Source of the DNA: an uncultured Fibrobacterota bacterium
GTDB taxonomy: Bacteria > Fibrobacterota > Chitinivibrionia > Chitinivibrionales > CAIOZP01
NCBI GenBank assembly: GCA_903862805.1
Contig: CAIOZP010000380.1
Span: forward strand, 1-17,868
Direction of reading: 5' to 3'
DNA: 17,868 nucleotides
Under the pieces are notes generated by a model. The model was given only the letters and a program-made list of their open reading frames with translations. It searched no databases and had not been told where the DNA came from. This document shows, piece by piece, positions 2,529 through 17,868 of the stretch (its first letter is position 1; every line of letters begins with the position of its first letter). Made by a program: the position numbers and the translations under genes.

Positions 2529-3377
2529 ATGCAGTGGATTCTGCAGTTTCTTATAAGGCATCGCAATTTTACGTCGCTTGCGCTGACGATTATTCTCTCG
2601 TTCATCATGCTCAACACCAATCTTGCAACCCAGCAACGAACGGCACGATTCCTTGCGGTCTCGATTTTTTTTCCGGTTGATCTTCCGATTTCTGTTTTTC
2701 AACATGCAAAAAACATCTACGGAGAGAACACTGAACTTCGTGGCGACGTCGCTGCGCTGCGCATGAAGGTCTCAGGTCTTGCAGATCAGGCCGCCGAAAA
2801 CGATCGCCTCCGTGCAATGCTTTCCATGCGCGAACATGCGTCGTACACTCTCGTGGCAGCACGGGTTGTAGCACGCGAACCATCCGAAATTTATCGCGGA
2901 TGTGTGATTGACATCGGGCGGGATCAGGGTGTCGAACTTCACATGCCGGTCATTTCAAAAGACGGCGTGGTTGGCAAAGTAACGCAAGTGCTCGGGAACT
3001 GCTCGTATGTAAGACTTCTGCGCGATCCGCTCGAACGCGCCGGAGTCAAATCGGCACGCACTGGCGAGACGAGCATCCTGCAAAGCCTCGACGGCGAATC
3101 GTTCTTCATGAACTACCGCCAGCATTCCGATATTCACAACGGCGACACATTGGTCACATCGGGCTACGGCGGGGTTTATCCGCGCGGACTTCCGATTGGT
3201 ACAGTGTCCGATATCCGCAATGCAAACAGCCCGCTTCTCAAAGATGTCTATCTAAAACCATTCGTCGATTTCGACAGACTTGACGAGGTCTTCGTGATAA
3301 AAATGTCTCCATCGTGGGGGGCGCTTCGCAACCAGATTGATTCAGTGAAGGTCGATGATGGGCGCAGAAATAAGTAA
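2529..3377 (+). CDS. mreC: Rod-shape-determining protein MreC
   Basis: Bitopic inner-membrane protein whose periplasmic domain activates the PBP2-RodA synthase and links it to MreB. At 282 aa it has family length. One N-terminal transmembrane helix (about residues 14-30) is followed by a coiled-coil stretch (about 60-98, with ENTELRGDV and AENDRLRAML), then the beta-rich MreC domain with DIGRDQGV, MPVISKDGVVGKV and the VTSGYGGVYPRGLPIGTV segment typical of the family. A strong GGAGG (2516-2520) precedes the ATG by 8 bp. It begins 30 bp after mreB, and its last 23 bases overlap mreD, so translation of the two is probably coupled. Confidence 0.96.
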   Translation: MQWILQFLIRHRNFTSLALTIILSFIMLNTNLATQQRTARFLAVSIFFPVDLPISVFQHAKNIYGENTELRGDVAALRMKVSGLADQAAENDRLRAMLSMREHASYTLVAARVVAREPSEIYRGCVIDIGRDQGVELHMPVISKDGVVGKVTQVLGNCSYVRLLRDPLERAGVKSARTGETSILQSLDGESFFMNYRQHSDIHNGDTLVTSGYGGVYPRGLPIGTVSDIRNANSPLLKDVYLKPFVDFDRLDEVFVIKMSPSWGALRNQIDSVKVDDGRRNK

Positions 3378-3858
3378 GTGGATCGCGTTCGTTCTGGGCG
3401 CAATGATTCTTCAGACCACGATCGTTCCGATGATCGGCGTTCTGGGCGTTCGCCCCGATCTGGTGATATTAGCGCTGTTCTTTCTGTCGGTTCGCTTCGG
3501 TATGCTCACAGGCATCTGGGCCGGCTTTGCAATCGGACTCATGCAGGATGTCTATGCGCCGTCGCAGATGCTGGGACAGGCCTCGCTTGCCGGAACGATC
3601 ATCGGCGGGTTCTTCGGCTTCTTCAACGATCGCACCATGCGTATCGACGCGCCGATGAAGGCACTGATCATCCTGTCGGGAATTCTTGCCCACGACATAA
3701 TCTTCCACGGTGTTCAGCTGATGCGTCTCGGACAGAATCTTTCTTCGTTGCCGATTACGCTCATTACTCGTTCACTGCCATCGGCGATTTACTCGGTGGC
3801 GCTTTCTGCGGCGATCTATTTCTACGTCAACGCCATTCGCCCCAATCTGAGGCGATAA
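3355..3858 (+). CDS. mreD: Rod-shape-determining protein MreD
   Basis: Small polytopic inner-membrane partner of MreC. The 167 aa hold about five hydrophobic helices and the family hallmark run near residue 30 (GVRPDLVILALFFLSVRFGMLTGIWAGFAIGLMQDVYAPS): a PDL motif, then G-x-x-xGfxxGLxqDv. Two ATGs stand in tandem at 3355 and 3358. The GAAGG at 3347-3351 is 3 bp from the first and 6 bp from the second, so 3358 (MGAEISKW) may be the true start. Overlap with mreC and the 6-bp gap to mrdA indicate a single operon. Confidence 0.94.
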   Translation: MMGAEISKWIAFVLGAMILQTTIVPMIGVLGVRPDLVILALFFLSVRFGMLTGIWAGFAIGLMQDVYAPSQMLGQASLAGTIIGGFFGFFNDRTMRIDAPMKALIILSGILAHDIIFHGVQLMRLGQNLSSLPITLITRSLPSAIYSVALSAAIYFYVNAIRPNLRR

Positions 3859-3864
3859 GAATCT

Positions 3865-5886
3865 ATGCCAAAAAGCGCTCGCCTTCAGGATGAACTCGCA
3901 GAACGCACCCGGAAAAGCCGCATCCTGATGGGCGTTGTCGCGGCCGCGTTTGTTGCGCTGTTCCTGCGACTCTTTTTTCTTCAGGTGGTTGACGCTGATA
4001 AAAACATCCGGCTTTCACGCGAAAACCAGATGAGGCTCAATATTATCAAGGCACCGCGTGGACTCATCTACGACCGCAACGGTGTGATGCTCGCCCGCAA
4101 CCGGCCATCGTACTCGATTTCGATCCTTCCGTATAAAACCGAGCGATCCATCGACATCTTCAAACGCCTTATGTCCGTAAGAGATTCTTTGGGACGACCG
4201 GTGTTCGACAGCGTCGACCTCTCGCTTCGTCTGACCCGCGCCAAGTGGCGCCGCTTCGAAGAGACACGCCTTAAAGACGATGTTTCGATGGACGTGGTCA
4301 GCGTGATCGAAGAACACTCCGACGATCTCCCCGGCGTGTATGTCCAAACCGAATCGCGCCGTGAATATCCGATGGGCTCGAAAACATTTCATGCCCTTGG
4401 ATACATGAGCGAGATCAACGACGACCAGATTGATTCATTGTCTAAGTTCGGATACATGTACGGCGACCAGATCGGCCGCGCCGGTGTCGAGGAGCAGTAC
4501 GAAAAGACGCTCAAGGGCGTTGACGGCCGCGAATACATCGAGATAAACGCCTACGGCCGCAATATCGGAAACGTTCCAAACACGCCGCGCATCGACCCGA
4601 AGCCCGGCAACGATATTTATCTCGCCATCGATTCGAAGATGCAGGAGATCGCGGCGCGCGACTTCGGCGATTCGCTTCGTGGAGGACTCGTCGCTATCGA
4701 CCCTCGCAACGGTGAAGTGCTTTGCATGTACAGCTCACCTTCGCTCGACCCGAATATCTTCTCGCTCGCTCCCAACATCCGATCGAAAGAATGGGCGAAG
4801 GTCGCGCTTGATCCGCGCCTGCCGCTAAACAACCGCGTGACCACCGGCGTCTATCCGCCAGGTTCCACTTTCAAATTGGTCACGGCCCTCTCGGGTCTTG
4901 CGAGCGGTCGCGTCAAACCCGACGAACACATGCCGCGTTCTTGCACCGGTTCATTTGCTTTCGGTAGCCGCATCGCTCATTGCTGGAAGAAGGACGGTCA
5001 TGGATACACCAATGTTTACGAGGCGATCCGCAGTTCCTGCAACGTCTATTTCTATCAGGTCGGACTTCGTGTCGGCGACAGCTTAATCAACTTCTACGCC
5101 GATCGCGTCGGCTTCGGTCATCAAACCGGCATCGACCTTCCATCCGAAAGATCGGGCTGGCTTTCCGGTGAGGCACAGTACAACGAAAAATACGCGAAAC
5201 GCGGATGGACATGGACCGGCGGCATGGTGCTTGACCTCGCCATCGGTCAGGCGCAGCTTGTGACACCAATTCAGGAGGCCGTGATGGTCGGCGGTCTTGG
5301 TACCGGCGACATCGTTTATACGCCGCATGTTTTCAAGGAAGAACGCGACCGGAACGGAACCGTGATAAATCAGTTCAAGCCGGTTATCAGCCGTCACGTC
5401 GGACTCAACCAATATCTGCGCGACTGCCTGCACAAAGGCATGGCCGAAGTGGTAAACGAACCCGGCGGAACTGGCGGACGCGCTCGCGTTCCCTTCCTCA
5501 CCGTGGGCGGGAAAACCGGATCGTCGCAAAACCCTTTCTCCGACAAGACGCACGCCCTGTTCGTCGGATGTGCGCCGCTTGACAAACCGGTAATTGCAAT
5601 CGCCTGCGTTGTCGAAGAAGCCGGTCACGGCGGATCGGTTGCCGCGCCAATCGCCGGTGATGTCATGCGATATTTCTTCTCACGCACACCCGAAGGCCGC
5701 ATGCTCACCGAAAGCAGCGCCAGAGCCGACGGCAAGGAACAGGAACTCGCCGCATACTGGGCACAAATCGACAGCGTCATAAAAGCAGAGCGCAATCCGG
5801 TAGTCCCCGACAGCACGAAGGTTCAACCGACTGTCGCGACCGCCAAGTCTGCACCTGCTGTAAAACCGAAAGGATCCGGCCGATGA
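3865..5886 (+). CDS. mrdA: Penicillin-binding protein 2 (elongation-specific transpeptidase)
   Basis: Class B PBP that cross-links side-wall peptidoglycan, working as a pair with RodA under MreC control. The 673 aa are within the PBP2 range. An N-terminal membrane anchor (about 19-41) is followed by the pedestal/dimerisation region beginning with APRGLIYDRNG (63-73). The transpeptidase domain has all three active-site motifs: STFK (nucleophile Ser334, Lys337), SCN (Ser391-Asn393) and KTG (550-552). A Cys pair (360, 373) flanks the CTGSF...HCWKKDGHG segment that many PBP2s share. The C-terminal tail of about 50 residues after 615 is Ala/Lys/Pro-rich and low in complexity. The stop overlaps the rodA start (ATGA). 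Confidence 0.97.
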   Translation: MPKSARLQDELAERTRKSRILMGVVAAAFVALFLRLFFLQVVDADKNIRLSRENQMRLNIIKAPRGLIYDRNGVMLARNRPSYSISILPYKTERSIDIFKRLMSVRDSLGRPVFDSVDLSLRLTRAKWRRFEETRLKDDVSMDVVSVIEEHSDDLPGVYVQTESRREYPMGSKTFHALGYMSEINDDQIDSLSKFGYMYGDQIGRAGVEEQYEKTLKGVDGREYIEINAYGRNIGNVPNTPRIDPKPGNDIYLAIDSKMQEIAARDFGDSLRGGLVAIDPRNGEVLCMYSSPSLDPNIFSLAPNIRSKEWAKVALDPRLPLNNRVTTGVYPPGSTFKLVTALSGLASGRVKPDEHMPRSCTGSFAFGSRIAHCWKKDGHGYTNVYEAIRSSCNVYFYQVGLRVGDSLINFYADRVGFGHQTGIDLPSERSGWLSGEAQYNEKYAKRGWTWTGGMVLDLAIGQAQLVTPIQEAVMVGGLGTGDIVYTPHVFKEERDRNGTVINQFKPVISRHVGLNQYLRDCLHKGMAEVVNEPGGTGGRARVPFLTVGGKTGSSQNPFSDKTHALFVGCAPLDKPVIAIACVVEEAGHGGSVAAPIAGDVMRYFFSRTPEGRMLTESSARADGKEQELAAYWAQIDSVIKAERNPVVPDSTKVQPTVATAKSAPAVKPKGSGR

Positions 5887-7172: not shown

Positions 7173-7997
7173 ATGCATCCGGTTATTTTTTCGATAGGTC
7201 ATTTTGGAATCCATTCATACGGACTAATGCTCGCGATTTCGTTTTTGTTCGGAATCTGGATCGCAACAGAGCGTGCCAAAAAATCCGGACTCGATCACAC
7301 CGTAATGGCCGACCTCGGATTCTGGCTGATCATTTCGGCGATCGTCGGAGCACGCCTCTACTACGTCGGGCTCCACTTCGAGGAATTTCAGGACGATCTT
7401 TTTTCTATTGTCAATCCGTTCCAGCACGGCCAGATCGGTATCGGCGGATTGGTAATGTACGGTGGATTCATCGGCGCATTCCTTTCGGGTCTGATCTTTT
7501 TCCGCATGAACAAGATGCCGTTTCTGCCCTACGCAGATGCGGTCGCGCCAGCGTTTGCCTTCGGTGAGTTCTTCACCCGAATCGGTTGTTTCATGAACGG
7601 TTGTTGTTACGGAATGCCTACGACATCCAAAATTGGCGTCTGCTTCCCGATGGATTCTCCGGCGGGTCAGTATCAGGCCCTGATGCATGCCCATGCGCTG
7701 ATGCCAAGTCAGCTTTTCCTTTCCGGCGGCGCACTTGCAATCGGGCTGATAATTCTTATAGCGTCGATCCCAAAAACTTTTTCAGGGTTTCAGTTTTATC
7801 TGACAATGGCGCTTTCTTCGGCGCTTCGTTTCGCGGTTGATTTCACGAGGTACTACGGCCCGGGCGAAACCTTCAAGGGACTCTCGCACAATCAGTGGCT
7901 TTGCATTGCGATCTTCGGAATCATGGTTGTTCTGATCATTGCCGGTTTCGTGAAGAAGCCTGGCAACACCGTTGATACAGGAGCTGCGACCGCATAA
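7173..7997 (+). CDS. lgt: Lgt-family prolipoprotein diacylglyceryl transferase, Cys-rich variant
   Basis: Inner-membrane Lgt-family protein. Lgt transfers diacylglycerol from phosphatidylglycerol to the lipobox Cys of prolipoproteins. The 274 aa have about seven hydrophobic helices. Seen motifs: HSYGLMLAISF near the N-terminus (Tyr16, equivalent to E. coli Tyr26), GLVMYGGFIGA (92-102), TRIGCFMNGCCYG (135-147) and LRFAVDFTRYY (218-228). The family signature is GRIGNFINxExxG; here the Arg, the second Asn and the last Gly are kept, but the first Asn is Cys139 and the Glu is Cys144. The His of HGG is Tyr96, and the Glu of VEF is Asp223. It lies 12 bp after rodA with AGGAAGAGG as ribosome site, so it is the last gene of the operon. 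It could be a functional variant Lgt or a paralogue with another acceptor. Confidence 0.85.
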   Translation: MHPVIFSIGHFGIHSYGLMLAISFLFGIWIATERAKKSGLDHTVMADLGFWLIISAIVGARLYYVGLHFEEFQDDLFSIVNPFQHGQIGIGGLVMYGGFIGAFLSGLIFFRMNKMPFLPYADAVAPAFAFGEFFTRIGCFMNGCCYGMPTTSKIGVCFPMDSPAGQYQALMHAHALMPSQLFLSGGALAIGLIILIASIPKTFSGFQFYLTMALSSALRFAVDFTRYYGPGETFKGLSHNQWLCIAIFGIMVVLIIAGFVKKPGNTVDTGAATA

Positions 7998-8098: not shown

Positions 8099-8422
8099 AT
8101 GGGAATACTGACACGCCTGAGAGACATTGCAAATCTTCCGACACTTCCGGAGATTATTGCAAAGCTGCGCGTGGCCATTTCCGACGGTGAGCGAGGCGCA
8201 TCTGAAGTCGCAAACATTGTCATGCAGGATCCAGCCCTTTCTTCGATGGTGCTGCGTGTTGCGAACTCGGCCCTGTACGCTGGTGCTTCCTCGGTTCGCA
8301 GAATTCAGGATATTCGCACAGCGATCATGCGCATCGGTTTTTCTGAGGTAATGAAAATCTCCGCCGTTGTATGCGCCATCCGACAGTTTCCAAATACAAA
8401 TTCGCTTATAGGATACCGTTAG
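8099..8422 (+). CDS. HDOD protein, N-terminal fragment before the TAG
   Basis: As the sequence stands, normal translation from the ATG at 8099 gives 107 residues ending ...NTNSLIGYR. That is roughly the first half of the HDOD domain, without the HD dyad and the C-terminal helices. It is unlikely to fold into a complete domain. See the entry for the whole interrupted gene. Confidence 0.55.
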   Translation: MGILTRLRDIANLPTLPEIIAKLRVAISDGERGASEVANIVMQDPALSSMVLRVANSALYAGASSVRRIQDIRTAIMRIGFSEVMKISAVVCAIRQFPNTNSLIGYR

Positions 8423-8476
8423 TTCTGGCGGCACAGCCTTACTGCTGCCGGTGTCGCCGCACTTGTCGCCGAGAAG

Positions 8477-9019
8477 GTGAACTGCTCTTCATCCGTACCG
8501 AGCGTGTCCAAAGAAGACATCTTCATGGCAGGACTTTTTCACGATATTGGCATACTTATTTACGATCAGTTTTTTCATGAGGAATTTGCGAAGATTGTCG
8601 ATCTCGCACTTGCCAAGAGCATAACTTTTCTTGAAGCTGAAGAAACCCTCGCGCCACGGGAAACCCACGGAATGCTTGGAGCCGCTCTACTTGAAACCTG
8701 GCGGATCCCTTTGAATGTGATCGACCCGATCCGCTTTCACCATTCGCCGCTTCGTGCTCCGCAGAACCATGTGATTCCGGTGACTATCATGGCGCTAACC
8801 GAACATCTGCTGGCCAATGCCGGCGTGTCGTCGTTCGAGGGAAACCCTGGCCGGATCAATCCACAATACTGGGAGATCCTCGGTATTTCCTCCAAGCAGG
8901 AAGAAAGTCTGACTCTGCTTGCAAAACTCGAAGCCGACAAATCCGACGTTGTAATGTTCTTTGACAAATCACCGGGGCTCGCGTCTTCCGGTAGTGCAAC
9001 CCTTTTGAGAACGGTCTGA
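8477..9019 (+). CDS. HDOD protein, C-terminal fragment after the TAG
   Basis: The open frame resumes directly after the TAG. The first usable start codons are GTG at 8477 and ATG at 8525 (MAGLFHDIGI); neither has a convincing ribosome site, although AAGAAG lies 8 bp before the ATG. The fragment contains the HDIG-like dyad, the rest of the HDOD domain and a C-terminal tail of about 50 residues. It would be made only by reinitiation or readthrough. Confidence 0.5.
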   Translation: MNCSSSVPSVSKEDIFMAGLFHDIGILIYDQFFHEEFAKIVDLALAKSITFLEAEETLAPRETHGMLGAALLETWRIPLNVIDPIRFHHSPLRAPQNHVIPVTIMALTEHLLANAGVSSFEGNPGRINPQYWEILGISSKQEESLTLLAKLEADKSDVVMFFDKSPGLASSGSATLLRTV

Positions 9020-13827: not shown

Positions 13828-14029
13828 CTACATGATCGAGGGATTGATTTTCCTCATTTGCCCTGTCCACTTCCAATTTGTCAATAGAATTGAAGAAGAT
13901 TTTCCCCCTACCGCAAACAATAATCGGGCGTTTTTAAAAAAAGCTGGTATTTTAATATACAGACGTTGCACTTACGGCTCAATCCGAAGCAACGAAATAT
14001 CAGTTGAAATTCAAACGGAAGGGTTTGGA

Positions 14030-15055
14030 ATGAAACATCTTGTAACATTGGTAGCGGCTCTTGCCATGGTGTCTCAGGCAGGGGCAAAAACTCATGGTGT
14101 TCAGGTTCAGGAAGGGACGGTTAGCGCTCAGGCTTTGATCAACTGGGTAAATACACAAAAGGCCAAATCTCAGAATGTGATTATTCAGGCAAACGGTTTG
14201 AGTACCGACGACGGCGGCACCGGTTTTTGCTTGCAATGCAGTGACACAAACTCAAACCCCGACAACACCGTACCGAGAACGGTCAGCCTGTACGGAACCA
14301 GCGGAACACAGGGAACCGTATTTTTCGAGGCCGACATGGATATCGATTGCGATGCGAGCGACAACGGTGTTTGCAACGGATACGACCCATCGCATCAGGG
14401 CGGCCTGCTCTGCGACGATCAGTTTAGTTGCAGTATCTACAACAACGGTTCGGTGGACGCATCTGTAACTCCGTTCTATGTCATTCCAATTGGCGATCCG
14501 ATGAACTACGACACCCGTGGAATATCCATCGGTCAGGTCGCGGCAATAATCAACACACAGAACAACAGTATCACTTACGCGCCATTCCTTGATGGAGACG
14601 GAGTCGGACAGGAAATTGGCGAGTGTTCACCCGCCCTTGCCGATATTCTCGGAGTTGACGACAACCCAGACACCGGTGGCCAGTCGGATGGAATCACTTA
14701 CATAATATTCACCGGAGATGCCGGTCTGCTTGCCGAGTCTGATGTTGCAGATCATCAGTCGGCAATCGACCTTGGTTCTTCGCTTGCCGAACAGCTTATT
14801 GCATCCAGCGGCGTTTACAAACCAATGGGCGACAGACGTGCGACCTCGCCGTACCAGCTGAGCAGTAAGGCACTAAAGATTTCAGCATCGGGCAGCCACA
14901 GTGTTTCGGTATATTCGCTCAGTGGCCAGAGCGTAATGTCTGTCAGCGGCAACGGAGCGAAAAACTACGATTTATCAAAGCTCGCCGCAGGAACTTACCT
15001 CGTAAAAATGAATATCAAGAATTCGGCATTTTCGCAGAAGCTGATCATTCAGTAA
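14030..15055 (+). CDS. Secreted GH75-type chitosanase with T9SS-like C-terminal sorting domain
   Basis: Predicted extracellular endo-chitosanase. The start is taken at ATG 14030 because a clean signal peptide follows (MKHLVTLVAALAMVSQAGA, cleaved near residue 19); an in-frame ATG at 13832 would place 66 unrelated residues before it. Residues about 85-235 match the GH75 pattern as I recall it: VSLYGTSG, the hallmark FFEADMDIDCD (98-108) followed by DPSHQG, TPFYVIP (147-153), an acidic active-site segment FLDGDGVGQEIGE (186-198) and DGITYIIFTGD (220-230). Asp188 or Asp190 and Glu198 are the likely catalytic pair; this is inferred. Six Cys lie in 67-134 and may form disulfides. Residues about 280-341 (VYSLSGQSVMSVSG...LAAGTYLVKM...SQKLIIQ) form a T9SS-type sorting domain. 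The gene is monocistronic, followed by a strong terminator. Confidence 0.8.
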   Translation: MKHLVTLVAALAMVSQAGAKTHGVQVQEGTVSAQALINWVNTQKAKSQNVIIQANGLSTDDGGTGFCLQCSDTNSNPDNTVPRTVSLYGTSGTQGTVFFEADMDIDCDASDNGVCNGYDPSHQGGLLCDDQFSCSIYNNGSVDASVTPFYVIPIGDPMNYDTRGISIGQVAAIINTQNNSITYAPFLDGDGVGQEIGECSPALADILGVDDNPDTGGQSDGITYIIFTGDAGLLAESDVADHQSAIDLGSSLAEQLIASSGVYKPMGDRRATSPYQLSSKALKISASGSHSVSVYSLSGQSVMSVSGNGAKNYDLSKLAAGTYLVKMNIKNSAFSQKLIIQ

Positions 15056-15202: not shown

Positions 15203-16237
15203 TCACCTCAAAAAAGACATCAGGCAAACACTCGTGCTCACGCCCCCGCCCAACAATCTCACAATAACAGGCTGAATGAATCCAACAGGAAGCTGAAGTT
15301 CGAGATGGCCGTTGGTTGTTTTACCTGATGCGAGTTTTCTGCCACACAAGGTATATACTCCTGCATCGACAGCAGACTTCGCAGATATTTCCACTTTGCC
15401 GGAAAGCAATCTTGCCGAGGGATGATTTGACAAAGACGCAATAGCTCCCTTTTCGATTACCGATGTCGCAGGCTTATACTCTGAAAGTTTCCAGTGTCTG
15501 CGCCTCGATCCACCACCGGCGAAATCGGGGTAATTGTAAGGATAGATTTCATCGTAGCAAACAGGACCGACATTGGGTACGCAAGTCCATGATGATATAT
15601 CGGGTATTGAAAAATCGGTATTGGCCTCAAGGCTGTTTCGACTCAGAATCACGGGAATTATAGCGTCGTTTAGAGTTGCCGCCCAACGCGACATTCCCGT
15701 GTCGGCACTGTATCTGTATGCATCCTCCGATAAACCATCAAGATTGACCTGCAAAGGCAAGATTGTCAGGTCTTCAATGTGCACTTTAGACGTGTCGGGT
15801 TCTGTTGCAATTGCGTAGCACTGACCGCTTCCATACTGCACGCTCCCGAACCGCACAAGCAAGGCGCTATCCCCGAAAGTTATCGTATCGACGCGGACTC
15901 GGGCAGGTGAAAATACAGAGTCATACGGAACAATGCTGTCGCCACCAACCAGAACACATTCCGTTGTCGTAACGGTTCTTTCTATCAGTCCGGCAACATT
16001 GTAGTAGCCGGATAAACTGTCATACAGATCCACCTTTGCAATGCGGAGAGATGCTGTTCCGAAATGGATTTCATCACTCTCATATATTGGTCCAGCATCT
16101 GAGAACCTCACGGTGTCGATGAACGTGTAATCCCACTCGTTACCCAATGCAATCGGGAAACATCCATCTGATATCGATGCCGAAACCGGCAACACACTCC
16201 AAAATCCAATAAAAATCGACAATAGAACCGGTTTCAC
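15203..16237 (-). CDS. Secreted protein of unknown function, possible T9SS cargo
   Basis: I do not recognise the main domain. The protein has 344 aa with a signal peptide (MKPVLLSIFIGFWSVLPVSA, cut near residue 20). The mature start, DGCFPIALGNEWDYTFIDT, resembles the FPLxxGNxWxY opening seen in many secreted hypothetical proteins of Bacteroidetes- and Fibrobacter-like bacteria. The rest is predicted beta-rich, acidic, with four or more Cys and no visible catalytic motif. The last 65 residues (KVEISAKSAVDAGVYTLCGRKLASGKT...LQLPVGFIQPVIVRL) look like a degenerate T9SS sorting domain. The start is GTG at 16237 (given as Met), chosen because GAGGTG lies 5 bp upstream. It runs towards the chitosanase gene and has no operon partner. 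A CATAAT box on the - strand (16276-16281) could be its -10. Confidence 0.75.
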   Translation of the reverse strand: MKPVLLSIFIGFWSVLPVSASISDGCFPIALGNEWDYTFIDTVRFSDAGPIYESDEIHFGTASLRIAKVDLYDSLSGYYNVAGLIERTVTTTECVLVGGDSIVPYDSVFSPARVRVDTITFGDSALLVRFGSVQYGSGQCYAIATEPDTSKVHIEDLTILPLQVNLDGLSEDAYRYSADTGMSRWAATLNDAIIPVILSRNSLEANTDFSIPDISSWTCVPNVGPVCYDEIYPYNYPDFAGGGSRRRHWKLSEYKPATSVIEKGAIASLSNHPSARLLSGKVEISAKSAVDAGVYTLCGRKLASGKTTNGHLELQLPVGFIQPVIVRLLGGGVSTSVCLMSFLR

Positions 16238-16808
16238 TTATGCACCTCATAACAGAAAGAGAAAGCATTCACGACATTATGGAAGCCCTTATCAAGATAC
16301 AAAATGGCATGACCATACGAAGGAGAAATGAGATTTTTGCCCCAACTGGGAAATCGTTGTTCGCGGAACGCTTCGATCATTCACTGCTCAACTAAAACAG
16401 GATAACAAAACGACGACCTTCGATAACGTCAAAAGTGCTTGCTTGATGAAGGAAGTTCCATCAGGTTTCTGGCAAGTGAAATTTTTCACAAATACCCCAA
16501 AATCGTTGATCGGAAAGAATCCCCAATGATCGGAAGCTATTTTTTCGGATCGGAAAGCAAAATTCATGATCGGAAACAGGTTTTGACTGATCGGAAGCCG
16601 AATTTTCGGATCGGAAAGTGATTCGGCATGATCGGAAAGCAAAATCGTGGATCGGAAGGTCGTTTTGGGTGATCGGAAAGAAATGCGAGTTGATTTTAAT
16701 AGCCGAAATTTCTTTCAGGCTTGCTCGGTATGTTCACACATTAAGTATTTTGCAACTGTTGCCGCATCGCAGCAATGAACTTCTGACAGTCTTTTCACAG
16801 GACGCAAA
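16238..16808. other. Non-coding region with a phased repeat array
   Basis: These 571 bp lie between two divergently transcribed genes and must carry the promoters of both. Short open frames on either strand (for example 16439-16621 on + and 16388-16642 on -) cross the repeats in changing frame and look accidental. Contents: a perfect GTTC-GCG-GAAC inverted repeat at 16359-16369, the GATCGGAA array at 16508-16680, and a leader of about 130 bp with no clear -35/-10 before the lipoprotein gene. Confidence 0.6.
16508..16680 (+). repeat. Nine GATCGGAA direct repeats with a 20-21 bp period
   Basis: GATCGGAA begins at 16508, 16528, 16548, 16568, 16589, 16609, 16630, 16650 and 16671. All eight bases are identical in all nine copies, all are in the same orientation, and the steps are 20, 20, 20, 21, 20, 21, 20, 21 bp. 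The preceding base is always T or G, and the base after is A or G, giving KGATCGGAAR. Between copies the 10-11 bp differ, but most hold a 4-6 bp A/T tract (TTTTTT, AAAATT, TTTT, AATTTT, AAAA, TTTT). A degenerate tenth copy (GATTTTAA, 16692) continues the spacing. The mean step of 20.4 bp is two helical turns, so all copies face the same side of the helix. The first copy lies about 300 bp upstream of the lipoprotein start. Confidence 0.95.
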
Positions 16809-17789
16809 ATGAAATACTCAGTAAAATTCACGAATGGATTCTATCGGGCAACTCTGTTGTCAATCACGGTCGCTGTTGCATTGACATCATCAGGATGTAC
16901 CTCGACCGCGTTTCCTTACCGTCACTATTACACTGAAGAGGCAACGATGCTCACCGGCGTGGAAACAGGCGAACCGACACCGGCCAAAAGTCTTATCGTA
17001 AAAGGCTGGGCCGAAGTTGTACCGCGCAAATCTTCGCTGGACAGTGGCAATGTTACAACAAACCATATCAACCCATATGCTGACGCCGGTGGTTACTCGG
17101 GTCCTGAAACTGTGGTGGTAACGCAGGTTCTTCCGCGTGAAAGGTTCGGATTGGATTTTGGCGTGGCAGTTACCAAACGATTCTCGGTCGGCGGAAGCCT
17201 TATGCTTGGCTATGGATACGGCCCTTCGGCTCCCGATATTTCTTACAACCGATATTCAAATTCAACAACCTCAAGCTATTTGACTTCAACCGTCACGAGT
17301 TCTGGCAGCGACCTGCGCAAGCCATCGTTCGCCGGAGGTTTCTGGGTATCCACCGGAAGCAAATACGATTCGACTTTCAGAAAGCCGCGGGTGCGTTATA
17401 CGTTCAGGCTTATGGTGGCAGACAGGAAAAGCGGTTACATGGACAGGAACCTTACAAGCGATACGGGCTATATCTCCGAACCAATGATCCAGGCGCAACC
17501 GAACTTTGGTCTGCAACTGCCACTAAACAAACACATGGCGGCGTTTACGGGTTTCTCCTTCAATCTCACTACCGGCCAGACGGACAATTTCGATTGCGAT
17601 GGTTGTCTCATTCACGGTGGGATCACATTCTGGCCGATCAAATATCTGAGTATCAAACCGATGGTGTCATATCACATACTGAGCTTTACGAAACGACCAA
17701 TTCCGCTTCTCGGACTGTATGCCAGTTACGACATTCCATTTTCAAAACTCAGAGGCCCATCAGAGGGTTCGGACGATTCAGGAAACTAA
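16809..17789 (+). CDS. Lipoprotein-like, beta-barrel-like outer-membrane protein of unknown function
   Basis: I do not recognise a named family. The 326 aa begin with a lipoprotein-type signal (hydrophobic about 14-29, then SSGC with Cys30), although the lipobox has Ser rather than Leu at -3. After about residue 110, alternating aromatic/Gly strands such as FGLDFGVAVTKRFSVGGSLMLGYGYG, YTFRLMVADR, FGLQLPLNKHMAAFTGFSFNL and YLSIKPMVSYHIL look like outer-membrane beta-barrel hairpins. The DCDGC pair of Cys is near 263-266. AGGA 6 bp before the ATG at 16809 supports the start. Its long upstream region carries the GATCGGAA array, so its expression may depend on it. It could be a small barrel with a lipid anchor, or a barrel whose Cys30 is incidental. 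Confidence 0.75.
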   Translation: MKYSVKFTNGFYRATLLSITVAVALTSSGCTSTAFPYRHYYTEEATMLTGVETGEPTPAKSLIVKGWAEVVPRKSSLDSGNVTTNHINPYADAGGYSGPETVVVTQVLPRERFGLDFGVAVTKRFSVGGSLMLGYGYGPSAPDISYNRYSNSTTSSYLTSTVTSSGSDLRKPSFAGGFWVSTGSKYDSTFRKPRVRYTFRLMVADRKSGYMDRNLTSDTGYISEPMIQAQPNFGLQLPLNKHMAAFTGFSFNLTTGQTDNFDCDGCLIHGGITFWPIKYLSIKPMVSYHILSFTKRPIPLLGLYASYDIPFSKLRGPSEGSDDSGN

Positions 17790-17833
17790 TCATCCGGTGT
17801 GAATTAGAAGCACATAGCCCTGTTATCAAATGA

Positions 17834-17868
17834 CCTCACCCCCTGCCCCCCTCTCCTTCAGAGAGGGG
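17834..17868. repeat. GC-rich hairpin repeat cut by the window end
   Basis: A C-rich stretch (CCTCACCCCCTGCCCCC) leads into CCCCTCTC (17848-17855), a 5-base loop and GAGAGGGG (17861-17868), a perfect 8-bp stem. The composition differs sharply from the neighbouring DNA. It resembles the dispersed CTCACCCCCT...CTCTCC palindromes found between genes in several environmental phyla. No T-run is visible inside the window, so a terminator role for the preceding gene cannot be judged. Confidence 0.5.

What the first reader, a model, noticed from the sequence alone, without database searches (positions are those of the whole stretch)
16508..16680. Helically phased array of nine GATCGGAA sites
Seen directly: nine perfect 8-mers, same strand, steps of only 20 or 21 bp over 163 bp, with unrelated spacers that mostly carry A/T tracts. 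Conserved cores among diverged spacers point to selection on the core and on its rotational position, not to recent tandem duplication. The non-integral mean (20.4 bp) matches two helical turns. Possible roles, all inferred: operator array for an oligomerising regulator of the lipoprotein gene or the divergent gene; a chromosome-organisation or origin-like iteron site; or a methylation switch, since each unit carries one GATC and SeqA-like proteins bind GATC pairs on the same helix face. I know of no described element with this pattern.
Basis: partly seen in the sequence, partly recalled or inferred. Interest (0 to 1): 0.87.

Follow-up and report, generated by a model that had tools for sequence, protein, structure and literature searches.

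The report
Regularly spaced array of nine DNA sites
Between two unstudied genes of an uncultured bacterium lie nine identical eight-letter DNA words spaced about two turns of the double helix apart, most likely a docking strip on which copies of one protein line up; related bacteria carry many plainer repeats with a similar step.

Summary
In detail: nine exact GATCGGAA, + strand, 16508-16678, steps 20,20,20,21,20,21,20,21. In 100 simulated sequences no 8-mer chained more than twice. The array is non-coding, between two orphan genes. All 72 core letters are intact; spacers are nearly random in letters, but their A/T runs sit about 10 bp from the core (36 of 20,000 shuffles with constrained ends held). 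That fits selection on word, rotational position and groove shape better than a decaying repeat. No other GATCGGAA pair at 19-22 bp exists in the held genome, and no comparable array was found in 166 phylum genomes or in one genome each of 84,980 species. It is not isolated in kind: in 15% of its genome 6 of 7 tandem arrays have periods of 21 or 41; its 10.2-bp A/T phasing is matched in 487 kb only by two of those arrays; some same-order genomes abound in 21-bp arrays. Best reading: cooperative operator for a head-to-tail oligomerising protein, grown from a lineage-wide repeat habit. Dam/SeqA, origin and RNA-sponge readings are not supported. The protein is unknown; no same-family genome is held.

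The parts
16508..16678 (+). Array of nine GATCGGAA cores (extended word KGATCGGAARS) at steps of 20 or 21 bp
16516..16670 (.). Eight 12-13-bp spacers, nearly random in letters, longest A/T run centred at unit position 12-15.5
16499..16503 (.). A/T block (AAAAT) about 10 bp upstream of the first core centre, as before later cores
16238..16808 (.). 571-bp divergent intergenic region that holds the array; no terminator-like site in 16100-16900 and one promoter-like site, as many as in shuffles
16809..17789 (+). Orphan lipoprotein-like ORF, 326 aa, starts 130 bp after the last core; one paralogue in the genome (C124), without an array
15203..16237 (-). Orphan ORF of 344 aa, secreted-looking, divergent from the array

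Best explanation
The array is a cis-acting site for one sequence-specific protein that loads as a cooperative, head-to-tail row, one protomer or dimer per 20.4 bp, all on one face of the helix. Each unit offers a directly read word (GATCGGAA) and, about one turn away, an A/T run with a narrow minor groove. Nine like-oriented asymmetric cores imply a directional row about 170-190 bp long that bends or stiffens the divergent region and switches the lipoprotein gene, the divergent gene or both. It probably began as a 20/41-bp tandem repeat of a type frequent in this genome, and was kept: cores and spacing held by selection, spacers free to drift. Shown: presence, uniqueness by word in what was searched, core/spacer contrast, A/T phasing, other arrays of like period. 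Inferred: the protein, its cooperativity, the regulated gene, the origin by duplication.
For: 72 of 72 core letters intact with spacers near random. A/T runs placed one turn from the core: 1 of 5000 within-spacer shuffles, 36 of 20,000 with the constrained end letters held. A/T phasing at 10.2 bp: of 18,965 unmasked 175-bp windows from 487 kb, 6 reach the array's value and all 6 lie in two 41-bp arrays of the same genome. Steps of 20 and 21 exclude a frame. Divergent promoter-type position. Precedents: BvgA-P, six dimers every 22 bp on one face (PMC7250471, passages); BldC, head-to-tail on direct repeats reading an A/T narrowed minor groove (PMC5859096, abstract and passages); iteron cooperativity lost when spacing changes by half a turn (PMC4980987, passages).
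Against: No protein, expression or binding data. The paralogous gene has no array. Single KGATCGGAAR sites look like background, 16 of 18 distinct scored sites lie in ORFs, so no wider regulon is visible. No convincing promoter found. Phasing is strongest at 10.2; at 10.3, 10.5 and 10.7 bp, 12, 120 and 4859 of 18,965 windows reach the array's value, and 10.2 was chosen knowing the step. Slight excess spacer similarity is a hint of duplication.
Confidence: 0.5

Rival explanations
1. An old minisatellite without function: a 20/41-bp tandem repeat made by slippage or unequal exchange, as elsewhere in this genome and order, now decayed.
For: Other arrays of period 21 and 41 in the same genome and many 20-21-bp arrays in some same-order genomes. 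TRF sees the window array as a 41-bp repeat, 3.2 copies, 72% matches. Spacers 2/5 and 3/7 share 8 of 12 letters.
Against: Decay or homogenisation does not spare an 8-bp core in nine of nine units while spacers approach randomness; mixed 20/21 steps keep the helical position.
Confidence: 0.25
2. A structural or chromosome-organising site: a curved, protein-coated segment (nucleoid, partition or anchoring function) and not a gene switch.
For: A/T blocks phased with the helix; two 41-bp arrays in the same genome share that phasing; the array occurs once per held genome by word.
Against: Position in a divergent promoter-type region next to a lipoprotein gene; 17% of the genome is missing, so 'once' is not certain; no partition gene noted beside it among the window's ORFs.
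Confidence: 0.14
3. Methylation switch or origin-like iteron site: GATC-bearing units read by a SeqA-like or initiator protein.
For: One GATC per unit; step typical of plasmid iterons, which are 17 to 22 bp long (PMC4980987, passages); Vibrio chromosome 2 iterons carry GATC (recalled).
Against: No PF02086 methylase and no SeqA in the held 83%; GGAA is as conserved as GATC; dnaA lies on contig C726; no TTATNCACA in the region, one looser TTWTNCACA at 16482; no skew sign change.
Confidence: 0.05
4. RNA-level sponge (CsrB-like): a transcript with nine GGA motifs that titrates CsrA.
For: The genome encodes CsrA; nine GGA at regular spacing.
Against: The word is UCGGAA and lacks the A two bases before GGA of CsrA sites (recalled); folds are no better than shuffles, z -0.48 and +0.63; GGA accessibility runs from near 0 to near 1 between copies; no Rfam match at gathering score; no terminator-like site.
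Confidence: 0.03

Closest known systems
BvgA-P operators of Bordetella (PMC7250471, passages)
   Same: Several sites on one helix face, two turns apart, upstream of a gene; spacing kept while sequence may be weak
   Different: 22-bp steps, inverted half-sites, up to six dimers, sites poorly conserved; here an asymmetric exact word nine times at 20.4 bp
BldC direct-repeat sites of Streptomyces (PMC5859096, abstract and passages)
   Same: Head-to-tail direct repeats, A/T-tract minor groove plus nearby base, row of variable length
   Different: One turn per protomer (AATT-N4-C), up to four subunits; here two turns per unit and a strong 8-bp word
Plasmid iterons (PMC4980987, passages)
   Same: Direct repeats, cooperative, phase-dependent
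   Different: 17-22 bp repeats, up to seven at R6K; here only 8-11 bp are conserved, chromosomal context, no Rep gene noted
Intergenic 21-bp and 41-bp tandem arrays of the same genome and order
   Same: Head-to-tail, period near two or four turns; two 41-bp arrays share the 10.2-bp A/T phasing
   Different: In L179, L233, L239 and L246 whole units are 85-95% alike; here only the core is. C520 is intermediate (spacer identity 0.45) but may be coding

Membership tests
Cooperative helically phased operator (functional class) | Repeated binding word on one helix face in a non-coding upstream region | tested here: met
Cooperative helically phased operator (functional class) | A protein that binds the word cooperatively | not testable with these tools
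   no binding data
BldC-type site | A/T tract plus base read every single turn | tested here: not met
   unit is two turns; A/T run and core alternate one turn apart, so works like it in part only
Plasmid-type iteron origin | Repeats of 17-22 bp beside a Rep gene | tested here: not met
   conserved word of 8-11 bp; no Rep gene noted among the listed ORFs, of which 12 were searched against families
Dam/SeqA GATC cluster | GATC methylase and SeqA in the genome | tested here: not met
   PF02086 0 of 1, PF03925 0 of 1; genome 83% complete, other methylase families untested
CsrB-type RNA sponge | ANGGA motifs presented in an RNA, often in hairpin loops (recalled) | tested here: not met
   word is UCGGAA; no stable fold
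Minisatellite / VNTR | Whole units alike | tested here: not met
   spacers near random
Minisatellite / VNTR | Copy number variable between strains | not tested
   no strain data held

The most novel reading that the evidence does not exclude
This bacterial order carries a class of intergenic 'two-turn arrays': locus-specific words repeated at 20.4-21 or 41 bp, A/T runs often in helical phase, sometimes as paired inverted arrays (G025), read by a family of filament-forming DNA-binding proteins that recognise phasing and groove shape first and sequence second. The window array would be the member in which selection has laid the recognition word bare. (Raised from 0.17 to 0.2, which found the same 10.2-bp A/T phasing only in two other arrays of the genome.)
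Probability: 0.2. Interest if true: 0.8.

Novelty: new variant of a known kind. Interest (0 to 1): 0.52.

Why it matters
Nine identical sites with freely drifted spacers are an unusually clean readout of what a row-forming DNA-binding protein would need: a short word, a fixed rotational position and an A/T run one turn away. If the two-turn arrays of the order are a class, they would be a natural series for asking whether tandem repeats are raw material for bacterial operators, and why some periods follow the helix and not the codon (41 and 20.4 are not multiples of three).

Tried and rejected
Adapter artefact: the letters after the 8-mer never continue as the Illumina adapter does (adapter recalled). 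Coding repeat: steps of 20 and 21 shift the frame. Array before the paralogous gene: none seen. Intergenic region against plasmids and phages: no match. Regulon of single KGATCGGAAR sites: 73 in the genome, 9 of them the array; 30 loci were fetched, 20 + strand rows scored, two of them repeats of the same sites, leaving 18 distinct sites, 16 in ORFs of 90 aa or more; - strand sites were not scored. Profile search of the phylum (stricter filters, weak matches may be lost): 29 of 167 genomes, own included, match at E up to 0.5; of 36 places outside the own genome 28 had loci and were scanned for repeats; only G016:C723 lies in an array, a 20-bp repeat at a contig end with 86% alike units; its unit recurs as an array in no other of the 40 order genomes by exact 13-mer; 8 places were not looked at. 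GGAA as a shared word of the arrays: dropped, since the control word AAGG is commoner in 7 of 31 genomes (G001, G007, G008, G014, G026, G028, G029). Literature: GATCGGAA in 2 papers, not opened; helically phased or 21-bp bacterial repeats, nothing relevant in the listings (two searches listed only part of their hits); other searches. RdfS (PMC11963761) was seen as abstract only. AraC, MalT, ParR, RctB parallels are recalled. Alignment A1 slid by a unit and was replaced by A2. Structure of the lipoprotein: mean pLDDT 39.7, strand-rich but too poor to use; no fold search was made.

Full report
WHAT IS THERE. The window is the whole of contig C380 of a fragmented genome (3.13 Mb, 748 contigs, 83% complete, 1.7% contamination). 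Nine exact GATCGGAA lie on the + strand at 16508-16678 with steps 20,20,20,21,20,21,20,21, mean 20.4 bp or 10.2 bp per turn. In 100 simulated sequences no 8-mer chained more than twice. The array lies in a 571-bp divergent intergenic region between a 344-aa secreted-looking ORF (15203-16237, -) and a 326-aa lipoprotein-like ORF (16809-17789, +). Neither has a Pfam or NCBIfam match; among 5.8 billion proteins one finds itself and the other a 99% identical cluster; neither is found in the 39 other genomes of the order. The lipoprotein has one paralogue, on C124 near obgE by its sequence, 45% identical; I saw no array before it.

ANATOMY OF A UNIT. The word is KGATCGGAARS in nine of nine. Spacers have 12 or 13 bases. 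In letters they are near random: 48 of 96 equal the column majority against 0.448 after shuffling (90 of 2000 shuffles as high); mean pairwise identity is a little above shuffles (3 of 2000 as high), with two pairs sharing 8 of 12 letters. In shape they are not random: the longest A/T run of every spacer is centred at unit position 12 to 15.5, about one turn from the core centre. 1 of 5000 within-spacer shuffles is as tight; with the constrained end letters held fixed it is 36 of 20,000. Over the whole array A/T blocks are phased at 10.2 bp: of 18,965 unmasked 175-bp windows in 487 kb of the genome, 6 reach the array's value, and all 6 lie in two 41-bp arrays (L239, L246). At 10.0, 10.3, 10.5 and 10.7 bp the numbers are 16, 12, 120 and 4859. 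The value 10.2 was chosen knowing the step, so these figures belong together. An earlier run on 7080 windows, masked ones included, gave 0, 3 and 30 at 10.2, 10.3 and 10.5.

WHY SELECTION IS THE SIMPLEST READING. An ageing tandem repeat loses cores and spacers alike, and homogenisation acts on whole units. Here 72 of 72 core letters are intact and the spacers almost saturated. Steps of 20 and 21 exclude a reading frame. The RNA reading is weak: folds of both strands are no better than shuffles, no Rfam family reaches its gathering score, and though CsrA is present the word is not of the ANGGA type (recalled).

IS IT UNIQUE? By word, in what was searched, yes. The held genome has no other pair of GATCGGAA at 19-22 bp. 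Of 59 relatives two have one pair each. A profile of the two-core unit found no comparable array in 166 other phylum genomes, with the limits told under Tried and rejected. A scan of one genome for each of 84,980 species for three cores gave 44 loci, and viral contigs 3; records very near the own genome may be left out by the tool. In these 47 the median spacer identity is 0.92; three stretches of three consecutive cores fall to 0.54, 0.54 and 0.23. 21 of the 47 have four or more exact cores; the least alike is L016, a Verrucomicrobia MAG, five cores at 21 and 42 bp, spacer identity 0.62; then L019, Halorubrum, five cores with mixed 20/21 steps, 0.76. The window has nine at 0.36.

BUT NOT ALONE IN KIND. 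A search without a preset word changed the picture. In 472,196 unmasked bases of the own genome (80 sequences, window included, contigs chosen for other reasons than repeats), seven tandem arrays have a period of 13 or more, 2.5 copies or more and a TRF score of 60 or more; six have period 21 or 41: C520 (21), C726 end (21), C245 (21), C487 (41), C258 end (41) and the window (41 by TRF, 20.4 by core); the seventh, C194, has 19. A further 14,421 bases added none. In 981,867 bases of five relatives, 3 of 16 arrays have period 20-21 and none 41-42; two have 84 and 168, multiples of 21 that I did not count. Fisher's exact test gives 0.005. It is after the fact; the window and G016:C723 were known beforehand, and without them the counts are 5 of 6 against 2 of 15; some relative stretches (G016, G158) were chosen because of profile matches. 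Periods of 41 and 20.4 are not codon multiples; the 21-bp arrays could be coding. The 41-bp array at C487 ends 137 bp before the ATG of a gene for a secreted-looking protein, the window array 130 bp before the lipoprotein ATG. C520 carries seven [CT]GGAA words at exactly 21 bp with spacer identity 0.45, upstream of a gene, but it reads as a 63-aa ORF with heptads.

RELATIVES. Three GGAA at 20-21 bp gives many matches in some genomes of the order, such as G025 (229; control word 44) and G020 (120; control 35), but the control word is commoner in 7 of 31 genomes, so the signal is 20-21-bp repeats in general, not GGAA. The listed places of G025 include three paired arrays, + then - strand, 30 bp apart (C2:43596-44074, C3:78305-78762, C3:169024-169607). 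G016 has two 41-bp arrays on C57.

MECHANISM. I take the array for a loading strip for a head-to-tail row of one DNA-binding protein. BvgA-P puts six dimers on one face every 22 bp (PMC7250471, passages). BldC forms head-to-tail rows on direct repeats, reads a narrowed A/T minor groove plus a nearby base, and bends the DNA (PMC5859096, abstract and passages). RdfS forms filaments with indirect read-out (PMC11963761, abstract). For plasmid iterons half a turn of extra spacing abolishes cooperativity (PMC4980987, passages). None matches in step, word length and copy number. The lipoprotein gene is the likelier target, by orientation and distance; that is inference.

ALTERNATIVES. Methylation switch: no PF02086 methylase and no SeqA, E. 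coli ringing in both controls; 17% of the genome is missing and other methylase families were not tested. Origin: dnaA is on C726; TTATNCACA is absent from the region, TTWTNCACA matches once at 16482. A functionless minisatellite is the serious rival, since the genome makes repeats of this period; the core/spacer contrast speaks against it.

LIMITS. No same-family genome, no expression, methylation or read data; the census covers 15% of the genome; the period comparison is small and after the fact; A/T phasing is a proxy for curvature; the structure prediction of the lipoprotein (mean pLDDT 39.7) is unusable.

VERDICT. Observation confirmed; the functional reading holds, and the array looks like the most refined example of a repeat habit of its lineage. 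Interest 0.52; a new variant of a known kind, the cooperative phased operator. The odds of the novel reading were raised from 0.17 to 0.2.

Noticed in passing
L239 (G000:C487) 3296-3681: 41-bp array, 9.4 copies, 85% alike, between purL-like gene and a secreted-looking ORF; A/T blocks phased at 10.2 bp as in the window array.
   Followed up: partly
L246 (G000:C258) 2901-3135: 41-bp array, 5.7 copies, running into the contig end, A/T blocks phased at 10.2 bp.
   Followed up: partly
L098 (G000:C520) 4537-4667: Seven [CT]GGAA words at exactly 21-bp steps with diverged spacers; also reads as a 63-aa ORF with heptads of the type hxxxFHx.
   Followed up: partly
L233 (G000:C245) 1596-1785; L179 (G000:C726) 7692-7868: 21-bp arrays, 92-95% alike, one between cheA-like and chemoreceptor-like genes, one at the end of the dnaA contig.
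   Followed up: partly
G025:C2:43596-44074, C3:78305-78762, C3:169024-169607 (places, not fetched): Paired 21-bp arrays of opposite orientation, 30 bp apart; the two arms share GGAACA and a tail but differ in the middle of the unit.
   Followed up: no
L143 (G016:C723) 1-130; L295 (G016:C57) 968-1419: 20-bp array at a contig start with GATCGGA and ATTTT in the register of the window array; 41-bp arrays on another contig.
   Followed up: partly
window 8099-9019: HDOD-type gene seems split into two ORFs (8099-8422 and 8477-9019); the first covers only 86 of 196 profile positions. Described only.
   Followed up: no
window 17830-17868: The contig ends in a C-rich stretch with an inverted repeat, looking like a dispersed repeat that stopped the assembly.
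   Followed up: no
window 13832-15055: ORF with a GH75 chitosanase match and a type IX secretion C-terminal sorting domain.
   Followed up: no
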